A DNA stretch of 64,000 nucleotides from positions 868,001 through 932,000 of the forward strand of contig JAEMGR010000001.1 in the NCBI GenBank assembly GCA_016458225.1, given 5' to 3'. A model generated the notes under the pieces. It worked only from the letters and a program-made list of their open reading frames with translations, ran no database searches and was not told where the DNA came from. The DNA comes from Myxococcaceae bacterium JPH2 (lineage in GTDB: Bacteria; Myxococcota; Myxococcia; Myxococcales; Myxococcaceae). Below, one piece after another: positions 55,548 through 58,579 of the stretch. Both the position numbers and the translations under genes were made by a program. Positions within the stretch are counted from its first letter, which is position 1, and the number at the start of each line of letters is the position of its first letter.

Positions 55548-56426
55548 GTGGGACACAAGCGAGCCCGGGGCGGGTTCCAGATTCCAGGGTGGGCGTGGTG
55601 GCTGGTGCCGTGCGTGCTGGGCCCCGTGGTGGTGCTCAACCTGCTGGTGGCCTGGCTGGGCGACACGCAGGTGCCGCTCCTGTCCTTCGACTTCCTGGCG
55701 ACGAAGGCGCGCGCGCTCGGGGCGTACGTGCAGCATCGGCCGTCATGCGTGCTGGACAATCACCCACCGCTGGAGCCGCTCGTCGTGGCCGCCGAGCGAC
55801 GGCATGGCATTCCGACGGGGCTGCTCCAGGCGTTAGTGCAGGTGGAGTCCGAGACGCACACGCATCGCATCTCGGCGGCGGGGGCGATGGGGCCGGGGCA
55901 GCTCATGCCGGACACGGCTCGCCAGCTGAGAGTGGACGACCCCTTCGACCCGGGACCGGCCATCGAGGGCAGCGCGCGTTACCTGGCGGAGCAGCTGCGC
56001 CGCTTCGATGACGTGCGGCTGGCGGTCGCGGCCTACAACGCGGGGCCGGGCGCGGTGAACGGACACGTGCCCCACAACGGCGAGACCGAGTTCTACGTGG
56101 CGAAGGTGATGACCGCCTACGCGCGCCTGCGTCCGCCCCCCGCGCCCACGGTGAGGCCACCCCTGCGTGTCGCGGACAAGCGAGACACACCGAGCCCGGT
56201 AGCCAGAACGAAGCCCGAGCCCACCCCGCGTCCGCAGCCCGTGGCGGAGCGCCCCGTGACACGGCCGACGTCCAAGACTCCGACGGCGCGCGCCCAGAAG
56301 GTGGCGGAGCGCCCACAGCGCAAGCCCACCGCACGGGAGCGTCTCCCTGCGAAGCCATCTGTTCGGGGCGTTCGACGAGAAACAGCTCCGAAGAAAGCTT
56401 CGACACACGCGACGCGCGGCGCGTGA
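55548..56426 (+). CDS. membrane-anchored lytic transglycosylase with basic tail
   Basis: 292 residues from GTG 55548. Membrane helix ~15-38 (WAWWLVPCVLGPVVVLNLLVAW). SLT domain at ~75-200: catalytic Glu in ALVQVESETHT, then AAGAMGPGQLMPDTARQL, and VAAYNAGPGAV with PHNGETEFYVAKVM. It should cleave peptidoglycan between MurNAc and GlcNAc in the periplasm. C-terminal ~95 residues are disordered, Pro/Arg/Lys/Thr-rich and highly basic, perhaps binding wall or nucleic acid. GTG spacing (10 bases) after TetR implies cotranscription. Confidence 0.9.
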   Translation: MGHKRARGGFQIPGWAWWLVPCVLGPVVVLNLLVAWLGDTQVPLLSFDFLATKARALGAYVQHRPSCVLDNHPPLEPLVVAAERRHGIPTGLLQALVQVESETHTHRISAAGAMGPGQLMPDTARQLRVDDPFDPGPAIEGSARYLAEQLRRFDDVRLAVAAYNAGPGAVNGHVPHNGETEFYVAKVMTAYARLRPPPAPTVRPPLRVADKRDTPSPVARTKPEPTPRPQPVAERPVTRPTSKTPTARAQKVAERPQRKPTARERLPAKPSVRGVRRETAPKKASTHATRGA

Positions 56427-56595
56427 CCTCGCACTGAGCCAGACTTGAGGCAGGCAGCCCTTGAAGCAGGGGCCCTGCGGCGTGCAGCAGCACCAGTAAG
56501 GCACAGCGTACGGAAGGCCCTTCACAACGAGTAGCCCGCTTCACTCGCTTTGGGTCGAGCTGCTAAGTCCATGGCGAAAGCCACGGGAGTTCATT

Positions 56596-58578
56596 CTGAA
56601 GCTCGCTCTCCAGTCGCCGTCTCGTGCGTTCTACGCAGCAACGATTTCAGACTTCCTTCAGACACAACCCGATGAACTCATCGGGCTGCTGACCCGGAAG
56701 CATGTTGCCCACCACGCCGCAGCCGAAGCAGAGCAAGTGCACGCCTGGGGACGCGAGATTGACATCCTCCGTGCGGCGCTTCAGCACCTGGGCCCCGCAT
56801 GCACTTCCTGGGGAATCCTGCTGGAGTTCTCGCTGTATCGCCTCGGCAAACGCATGGACGCCATCCTCCTTGCGGCAGGGACGGTGGGCGTCATTGAGTT
56901 CAAAATTGGCGCAAAGCATTACGAGGCGGCTGACTGGCAACAACTTGAGGGCTATGCGCATGCACTGCGCGACTTTCACGCGGCCTCGCAGACTCGCCCC
57001 ATTGTTCCCATTCTCTGCGCCGAGAACGGTCCGACGCGACCAATCACGATGGTGCTTCACGACCAGGTTGCCAATGTCGTTGAAACCAACGCGAGCAACC
57101 TGCATGAGGCCCTGAGACAGCTGCCTCCCGGTCCCAATCTGCTCTCATGGGAAGAGTTCGAGGCGTCGCCCTATCGGCCCACGCCAACCATCATCGAGGC
57201 GGCCCGCGCAATCTATGCCGGGCACACCCTCGCGGATATCGGCAGAAGCGATGCCGCCACTCAAGCCATCTCGGACGCCATCGAGTTCCTCAAGGCGACA
57301 GCACATCGGGCACAACAGAACCGAGAGAAGATCATCTGCTTTGTCACGGGCGCCCCCGGTGCGGGGAAAACCCTCATCGGACTCGACCTTGCACTCACAA
57401 CTCGCCTTGATGACAGCCCAGCAGCCTTGCTCTCTGGGAATCCTCCTCTTGTTCATGTTCTGACCGAGGCCCTGGCCGAAGATGCGTCTGCCCGAACGCG
57501 CACGCCAAAAACCAAGACACGGCCACAGGCACAAGCCGCGATTCAGAATCTTCTCGGCTACCTCAAACAGCACACCACTGGCGCCGCCCCTCCGGAGCAC
57601 ATCGTTGTCTTCGATGAAGCACAGCGAGCTTGGGATGCGACCATTGGGCAGAAGCTCCTGGAACGACCCGACTCTGAGCCAGAGATTTTCCTCTCCATTC
57701 TTGAGCGGCTCGACTGGGCCCTTCTCGTGTGCCTCGTTGGGCCAGGGCAGGAGATCAATCGCGGTGAACAGGGCCTCTCCCTCTGGGGAGAAACACTCCT
57801 TCGCGCCGCCGCCACAGGCCGGAAGTGGCACATTCTGGCGGCCCCGCAAGCCCTTACTGGGGGACCCGACGTCTCCGGGACGGGGCTGTTCGGAGCACAC
57901 CCGTCCCATGGAATCCAGGTCGACACGGAGCCTCGACTCCATCTCACCAACTCGATTCGTTCCTACCGCAACGAACACCACGGCAAGTGGGTGGCGAGTC
58001 TGCTTGACGGGAATCTGAACCAAGCTCGCCAGGCGACCGCAGCGATGGCAGCCCCACCCGCCCTTCTGACGCGCAATCTCCAAACAGCCAAGAACTGGCT
58101 CCGGAGATATCGTCGAGGAGGCAGGACGGTGGGTCTCCTTGCCAGCTCGGGCGGAGTTCGCCTCATCGCGGAGGGGATTCCGCCTCCGCCTATATCCAAA
58201 GAACTGGATGCCATTGGCCACTGGTTCCTGAAGCCGCACACGGACTATCGCAGTTCTGGCGCACTGGAGTCCCCGCTCAGCGAGTTCGGCTGCCAGGGGC
58301 TCGAACTTGACTATGCCGGCATCTGTTGGGGCGGCGACCTGCTCTGGACCAATGCGTCGTGGCAGGCACGGCAAATGAGCGCGCCGAAGTGGAAAATCGT
58401 CCGCGACGAGTCTCGCAGACAATTTCGCCTCAACAGTTACCGCGTCCTCCTGACGCGGGCACGCGCCGGGCTCATCATCTACGTGCCAGAGGGAGAACCG
58501 GAGGACCCCACCCGAGTCCCAGCCGAGTTCGACCGCATCGCGGACACACTGCACCAAGCCGGCTGTGAGCGCATCTGA
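56596..58578 (+). CDS. PD-(D/E)XK nuclease fused to DUF2075/Schlafen-group-3-like helicase
   Basis: 660 residues if translation starts at CTG 56596, six bases after GGGAG. The first ATG/GTG/TTG in frame is GTG 56737, but sequence before it (SRAFYAATISDFLQTQPDELIGLL, in part) matches, as I recall, the conserved start of DUF2075 proteins. From CTG: N-terminal nuclease-like region with Glu77, Asp88 and Glu101-x-Lys103 (LLEFS, KRMDAILL, GVIEFKIG), the PD-(D/E)XK pattern. P-loop helicase domain: Walker A GAPGAGKT (~252-259), Walker B VFDEAQRAW (~338-346), and a C-terminal RVLLTRARAG motif VI-like element (near residue 620). Lower GC and Lys/Ile codons unlike neighbours suggest recent transfer. Likely a defence-type nuclease-helicase, not proven. 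Confidence 0.82.
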   Translation: MKLALQSPSRAFYAATISDFLQTQPDELIGLLTRKHVAHHAAAEAEQVHAWGREIDILRAALQHLGPACTSWGILLEFSLYRLGKRMDAILLAAGTVGVIEFKIGAKHYEAADWQQLEGYAHALRDFHAASQTRPIVPILCAENGPTRPITMVLHDQVANVVETNASNLHEALRQLPPGPNLLSWEEFEASPYRPTPTIIEAARAIYAGHTLADIGRSDAATQAISDAIEFLKATAHRAQQNREKIICFVTGAPGAGKTLIGLDLALTTRLDDSPAALLSGNPPLVHVLTEALAEDASARTRTPKTKTRPQAQAAIQNLLGYLKQHTTGAAPPEHIVVFDEAQRAWDATIGQKLLERPDSEPEIFLSILERLDWALLVCLVGPGQEINRGEQGLSLWGETLLRAAATGRKWHILAAPQALTGGPDVSGTGLFGAHPSHGIQVDTEPRLHLTNSIRSYRNEHHGKWVASLLDGNLNQARQATAAMAAPPALLTRNLQTAKNWLRRYRRGGRTVGLLASSGGVRLIAEGIPPPPISKELDAIGHWFLKPHTDYRSSGALESPLSEFGCQGLELDYAGICWGGDLLWTNASWQARQMSAPKWKIVRDESRRQFRLNSYRVLLTRARAGLIIYVPEGEPEDPTRVPAEFDRIADTLHQAGCERI

Positions 58579-58579
58579 G

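What the first reader, a model, noticed from the sequence alone, without database searches (positions are those of the whole stretch)
56596..58578. Nuclease-helicase gene with no standard start codon for its conserved N-terminus
The frame is open from 56500, and residues upstream of the first GTG (56737) look like the family's conserved N-terminus. No ATG, GTG or TTG exists there. CTG 56596 follows GGGAG with six-base spacing. Either a CTG (or ATT 56593) start is used, or the gene lost its start and makes a shortened protein, or a frameshift upstream from ATG 56571 is involved.
Basis: partly seen in the sequence, partly recalled or inferred. Interest (0 to 1): 0.65.

Follow-up and report, generated by a model that had tools for sequence, protein, structure and literature searches.

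The report
Defence nuclease-helicase gene starting with CTG
A likely anti-phage nuclease-helicase gene in a bacterium has no ordinary start codon for its conserved front end and most likely begins with CTG, a very rare start codon in bacteria, exactly where its three closest relatives begin with TTG.

Summary
The frame is open from 56500 to the stop at 58576-58578, with no ATG, GTG or TTG before GTG 56737. GTG 56737 is not the family start: it lies directly after a glutamine invariant in the 15-row alignment and inside a predicted helix. Of 74 full-length homologues, 71 have a canonical start before or within one codon of the conserved N-terminus. The protein matches the PADLOC candidate defence family PDC-S41 and Pfam SLFN-g3_helicase.

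The new evidence is positional. The three closest homologues (60-64% identical) all have TTG at exactly the codon where the window has CTG 56596. CTG is preceded by GGGAG at 6-nt spacing; GTG 56737 has no such site. CTG with such a site at exactly that codon occurs in 0.16% of random stretches. The N-terminal codons show no relaxation in this lineage.

Translation most likely starts at CTG 56596. Rivals are a recently lost start in a decaying gene, or a base error. No expression data were available. This is a rare case of a known phenomenon, of modest interest.

The parts
56585..56589 (+). Shine-Dalgarno-like GGGAG, 6 nt before CTG 56596
   Evidence: duplex with the 16S 3' end -6.9 kcal/mol, against -3.4 for GTG 56737
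56596..56598 (+). CTG, proposed start codon (codon 1)
   Evidence: aligned without gap with TTG in L036, L034 and L033
56596..58578 (+). PDC-S41 / SLFN-g3 nuclease-helicase gene, 660 codons plus stop
   Evidence: PADLOC PDC-S41 E 5.9e-213, Pfam SLFN-g3_helicase E 2e-62
56623..56736 (+). conserved N-terminus, codons 10-47, upstream of the first canonical start
   Evidence: 15-row alignment with invariant Q47; strand 13-16 and helices 17-22, 25-39 in the model; no lineage-specific relaxation
56728..57021 (+). nuclease-like core, residues 45-142, with invariant E77, D88, E101 and K103
   Evidence: invariant columns and helix-three strands-helix-strand order; naming as PD-(D/E)XK is recalled
56737..56739 (+). 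GTG, codon 48, first canonical start; judged internal
57334..58488 (+). Schlafen group 3 helicase domain (PF09848)
56430..58579 (+). segment absent from the same-genus genome G001, carrying only this gene; ends approximate

Best explanation
The gene is an intact, probably horizontally acquired, single-gene candidate anti-phage nuclease-helicase (PDC-S41 type). Its translation starts at the non-canonical codon CTG 56596, decoded as fMet by initiator tRNA and positioned by the GGGAG ribosome-binding site six bases upstream. CTG takes the place of the TTG found in its nearest relatives, so the full 660-residue protein with its conserved N-terminus is made, presumably at low level. Shown: missing canonical start, conserved N-terminus, positional match to TTG, good ribosome-binding site. 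Inferred: use of CTG in the cell, low level, defence function.
For: The three closest homologues (L036 64%, L034 60%, L033 60% identical) have TTG at exactly this codon, nine codons before the conserved arginine; with the window they form one branch at 100/97 support in a 28-row tree. GGGAG at 6-nt spacing gives -6.9 kcal/mol, against -3.4 for GTG 56737. CTG with a core site at this exact codon: 0.16% of random stretches. Codons 10-47 are not relaxed in this lineage: 5 unique changes against 4 in L036, compared with 84 against 49 in codons 48-660. No stop in 660 codons. UUG-to-CUG start changes are rare but recorded: 1 of 2,468 ancestral UUG starts (PMC5622118, passages).
Against: No expression data. 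CUG initiation complexes are less stable than AUG, GUG or UUG ones (PMC11497404, passages). The leader DNA matched nothing at E 0.001 or better in 188 other genomes drawn from the phylum, so the positional match rests on an ungapped but poorly conserved nine-codon stretch. Only one of the three TTG relatives passes the same core-site rule (L033); L034 has its core at 10 nt and L036 has none before its -9 TTG. L036 also has a TTG at -11. The window is sister to the three, not nested among them, and is flagged for unusual composition in the tree. Broken copies of this gene family occur elsewhere, which raises the odds of decay.
Confidence: 0.62

Rival explanations
1. The start was lost by mutation and the gene is newly broken: it makes nothing, or only a 613-residue product from GTG 56737 lacking the first 47 residues.
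For: CTG is a poor start; family members with internal stops or split frames exist (L154 and L177; split places in G887, and in G1243 and G1089). The window branch has more unique amino-acid changes than L036 overall (84 against 49 in codons 48-660).
Against: No stop or frameshift in 660 codons, no extra change in codons 10-47, and a well-placed ribosome-binding site kept. GTG 56737 has a weak site, cuts into helix 45-69 and drops three predicted secondary-structure elements.
Confidence: 0.22
2. A base error in the assembly hides an ordinary start codon.
For: The genome is a 144-contig draft and no reads can be inspected here; the nearest relatives have a canonical codon at that place.
Against: The rest of the 660-codon frame is intact, and consensus substitution errors are rare in modern assemblies (general knowledge).
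Confidence: 0.09
3. Another near-cognate, ATT 56593 or CTG 56560, is the start.
For: Both are in frame upstream of the conserved part.
Against: ATT is 3 nt from the GGAG core, CTG 56560 has only a -3.6 kcal/mol site, and the three nearest relatives have their TTG at the 56596 position.
Confidence: 0.05
4. Translation begins at ATG 56571 in another frame and shifts frame into the gene.
For: ATG 56571 exists upstream.
Against: Weak site (-3.6 kcal/mol). The nearest relatives have an in-frame TTG. I saw no recognisable slip site by eye; none was searched for by a tool.
Confidence: 0.02

Closest known systems
PDC-S41 (PADLOC candidate phage-defence family, one gene)
   Same: Whole-length match, profile positions 3-652 of 657, E 5.9e-213
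   Different: No canonical start codon for the N-terminus. Of 74 other full-length copies, 71 have one before or within one codon of the conserved N-terminus, one has ATG five codons further in, one has ATG followed by a stop, and one could not be assessed
SLFN-g3_helicase (PF09848), formerly DUF2075 (older name recalled)
   Same: Helicase domain, E 2e-62
   Different: Fused behind a nuclease-like domain, as in the other rows of the 15-row alignment
Rare bacterial CUG-initiated genes (PMC5622118, passages)
   Same: CTG at a codon where relatives have a TTG start
   Different: Here inferred from relatives at 60-64% identity, not from closely related strains

Membership tests
PDC-S41 | Match to the PADLOC profile over its whole length | tested here: met
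   positions 3-652 of 657, E 5.9e-213
PDC-S41 | Family N-terminus translated | tested here: inconclusive
   present and conserved in frame but without a canonical start
PDC-S41 | Anti-phage activity | not testable with these tools
   the family is itself only a candidate; a search for the name found no paper
SLFN-g3 helicase with PD-(D/E)XK-like nuclease | Walker A and B motifs and helicase profile | tested here: met
   PF09848 E 2e-62; invariant P-loop and FDEAQR columns in 15 rows
SLFN-g3 helicase with PD-(D/E)XK-like nuclease | Nuclease core with D and ExK | tested here: met
   invariant E77, D88, E101 and K103 in 15 rows, secondary-structure order in the model; catalysis not tested; motif name recalled
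CUG-initiated bacterial gene | No canonical start usable for the conserved N-terminus | tested here: met
CUG-initiated bacterial gene | Ribosome-binding site at workable spacing before CTG | tested here: met
CUG-initiated bacterial gene | Protein shown to begin at that codon | not testable with these tools
   needs N-terminal peptides or ribosome profiling

The most novel reading that the evidence does not exclude
Weak start codons are selected in this nuclease-helicase as a translational throttle: the clade of the window gene keeps TTG or CTG at one fixed codon so that a potentially self-damaging defence enzyme is made only in traces, and the CTG is an adaptive further step. In favour: in 3 of 10 other Myxococcota copies, the window's three nearest relatives, TTG is the only canonical start within 45 codons upstream. 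TTG is the nearest start in 10 of 71 copies overall, against 2,468 UUG among 68,906 ancestral starts in PMC5622118 (sum of the counts). Against: in three more Myxococcota copies with TTG nearest (L028, L031, L032) an ATG lies 3-5 codons further upstream, one of the ten (L125) is a run-on frame, and the copies are not independent.
Probability: 0.12. Interest if true: 0.5.

Novelty: new member of a known kind. Interest (0 to 1): 0.33.

Why it matters
Gene callers that accept only ATG, GTG and TTG would report this protein 47 residues short, losing a conserved part. If confirmed, it is a natural CUG start in a candidate defence gene with a TTG counterpart in relatives, useful for asking whether weak starts throttle dangerous enzymes. 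Otherwise it is an ordinary curiosity of start-codon evolution.

Tried and rejected
GTG 56737 as the family start: rejected, because all 14 other rows of the alignment carry sequence before invariant Q47 (the L010 row was entered one codon after its ATG), and because of the homologue census and the model. In the larger alignment the Q and W of this motif are both present in 66 of 74 rows, so they are not strictly invariant there.

Frameshift from ATG 56571: rejected.

Loss of the start by truncation at an insertion edge: G001 lacks the gene, and homology to G001 ends about 165 bases before CTG, so the edge is not at the start codon. The leader matched nothing in 188 other genomes drawn from the phylum, so I could not tell whether it came with the gene. 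Repeats: one imperfect inverted pair (56414-56431 with 58454-58471, 83%) has its left arm at the left edge, but its right arm lies about 110 bases inside the gene's end; I read it as chance. No tRNA gene in the window, no sigma-70-like promoter in 56300-56760, and no unusual RNA fold near the start (z -0.13).

A control for missing starts across 400 kb, comparing orthologous frames of G000 and G001, failed: upstream DNA is too alike in the two species, so 83 of 195 evaluated pairs were flagged, many through plainly wrong frames or an ordinary start further in (part of that output was cut). It gives no base rate; I used the published rate instead.

The first homologue search in genome contigs, by short peptide patterns, gave 8 loci; plasmids gave 4 records; viral contigs gave none. 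NCBIfam gave no family. Of the 8 loci, L009, L010 and L013 are not in the census.

A Cys-rich reverse frame in the leader (56525 down to 56439) had no convincing relative: best match outside its own place E 0.027.

The pre-submission recheck changed two things: only 1 of the other 270 frames has lower GC3 (I had first counted the gene itself), and the TTG excess in the family is weaker than I had first counted, so I lowered the novel reading from 0.15 to 0.12.

Full report
WHAT IS THERE. On the + strand the frame is open from 56500, after TAA 56497-56499, to TGA 58576-58578. The only canonical starts are GTG 56737 and later. Codon numbers below count CTG 56596 as codon 1.

WHAT THE PROTEIN IS. 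The frame matches PADLOC PDC-S41 from profile position 3 to 652 of 657 (E 5.9e-213) and Pfam SLFN-g3_helicase (E 2e-62). A 15-row alignment shows invariant E77, D88, E101 and K103, an invariant P-loop and an FDEAQR motif. The AlphaFold2 model from this alignment has mean pLDDT 87.7, with a helix-three strands-helix-strand unit at residues 45-142. I read this as a PD-(D/E)XK-like nuclease joined to a Schlafen-type helicase (the nuclease name is recalled). The best fold matches in the PDB by E-value are human SLFN11, a chain of RecBCD and human SLFN14, all at TM-scores near 0.3 or lower, which supports no more than a helicase kinship. A profile search of solved structures gave only two weak hits.

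WHERE IT LIES. The same-genus genome G001 has the flanking genes, a transglycosylase-domain gene to the left and an alpha/beta-hydrolase gene to the right. The two matching blocks are 94% and 89% identical, with about 280 bases between them in G001, and G001 has no match to the family. Homology stops at about 56430 and resumes at about 58579. The gene's GC3 is 0.68 against a median of 0.88; 1 of the other 270 frames called in 400 kb is lower, with the caveat that my frame caller favours high GC3. It is therefore probably an acquired single-gene insert.

THE START. Profile position 3 of PDC-S41 corresponds to codon 10. GTG 56737 is codon 48, directly after Q47, which is invariant in the 15 rows, and lies inside predicted helix 45-69. 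A GTG start would drop strand 13-16 and helices 17-22 and 25-39, which are modelled with confidence. For a census I took 74 full-length places that had been fetched as loci (profile start 9 or less, end 620 or more); 7 further full-length places had no locus and were not examined. Of the 74, 71 have a canonical start before, or within one codon of, the arginine column (55 ATG, 10 TTG, 6 GTG as the nearest). The other three are L095 (ATG five codons further in), L154 (ATG present but a stop follows) and L177 (a stop within the P-loop, so its N-terminus was not assessed). One of the 71, L125, has its nearest start 49 codons upstream, in a frame that runs on from an upstream segment. The copies are not independent of one another.

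The three closest relatives, L036 (64% identical), L034 (60%) and L033 (60%), join the window gene on one branch at 100/97 support in a 28-row tree. All three have TTG at exactly the codon where the window has CTG 56596, nine codons before the conserved arginine. L036 has a second TTG two codons earlier. The window is sister to the three rather than nested among them, so the direction of the TTG-CTG change is not fixed. The next relatives, L103-L105 at about 52% identity, have ATG four codons before the arginine.

The ribosome-binding site before CTG gives -6.9 kcal/mol with the 16S tail, compared with -3.4 for GTG 56737 and -3.6 for ATG 56571. The TTG relatives give -8.0 (L033), -6.6 (L034) and -2.2 (L036; -5.6 for its earlier TTG). 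A GGAG, GAGG or AGGA core at 5-9 nt occurs before 7.8% of 6000 random CTGs, and 22% reach -6.9 kcal/mol at any spacing. Of the TTG relatives only L033 meets that core rule. Among 20000 random 20-codon stretches free of stops and canonical starts, 4.4% hold some near-cognate with such a core, 2.8% a CTG, and 0.16% a CTG at the exact codon. The core rule was set after seeing the window.

IS THE UPSTREAM PART STILL UNDER CONSTRAINT? In codons 10-47 the window has 5 amino-acid changes not shared with its relatives and L036 has 4; in codons 48-660 the numbers are 84 and 49. The N-terminus is thus not decaying faster than the rest. The numbers are small, and a very recent loss of the start would not show.

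PRIOR FROM THE LITERATURE. In PMC5622118 (passages) 1 of 2,468 ancestral UUG starts, 1 of 5,080 GUG starts and 2 of 61,358 AUG starts switched to CUG. The event is rare but recorded. PMC11497404 (passages) reports that CUG initiation complexes are less stable than those on the canonical codons. The study that measured all 64 codons in E. coli (Hecht et al. 2017) was not held; that it found weak but measurable CUG initiation is recalled. A search for 'CTG start codon' with 'Myxococcus' found no paper, and one for 'PDC-S41' found none.

A NOTE ON NAMES. That the window comes from a myxobacterium (phylum Myxococcota) is my inference from genome size, composition and gene content, not the result of a call; the groups called Myxococcota copies here are the matches, which searched the window's own phylum.

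VERDICT. CTG 56596 is the best-supported start (0.62). A recently lost start (0.22) and a base error (0.09) are the main rivals. Step by step: the missing canonical start, the conserved N-terminus and the positional match are shown; use of CTG in the cell, low expression and defence function are inferred. It is a rare member of a known kind.

Noticed in passing
L154 and L177; places in G887, G1243 and G1089: Some PDC-S41 copies in other phyla are broken by internal stops or split into adjacent frames, so decay is not unusual in this family.
   Followed up: partly
L125: The PDC-S41 frame (819 aa) runs on in frame from an upstream segment that looks Nudix-like (motif recalled), either a fusion or a missing stop.
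   Followed up: no
window 56439-56525, - strand: Cys-rich reverse frame (VKGLPYAVPYWCCCTPQGPCFKGC...) in the leader of the insert; best match outside its own place in 60 genomes E 0.027.
   Followed up: partly
L033, L034, L036 (and L028, L031, L032): TTG is the only nearby canonical start in 3 of 10 other copies of this gene in the window's phylum, and the nearest one in 3 more that also have an ATG 3-5 codons further upstream.
   Followed up: partly
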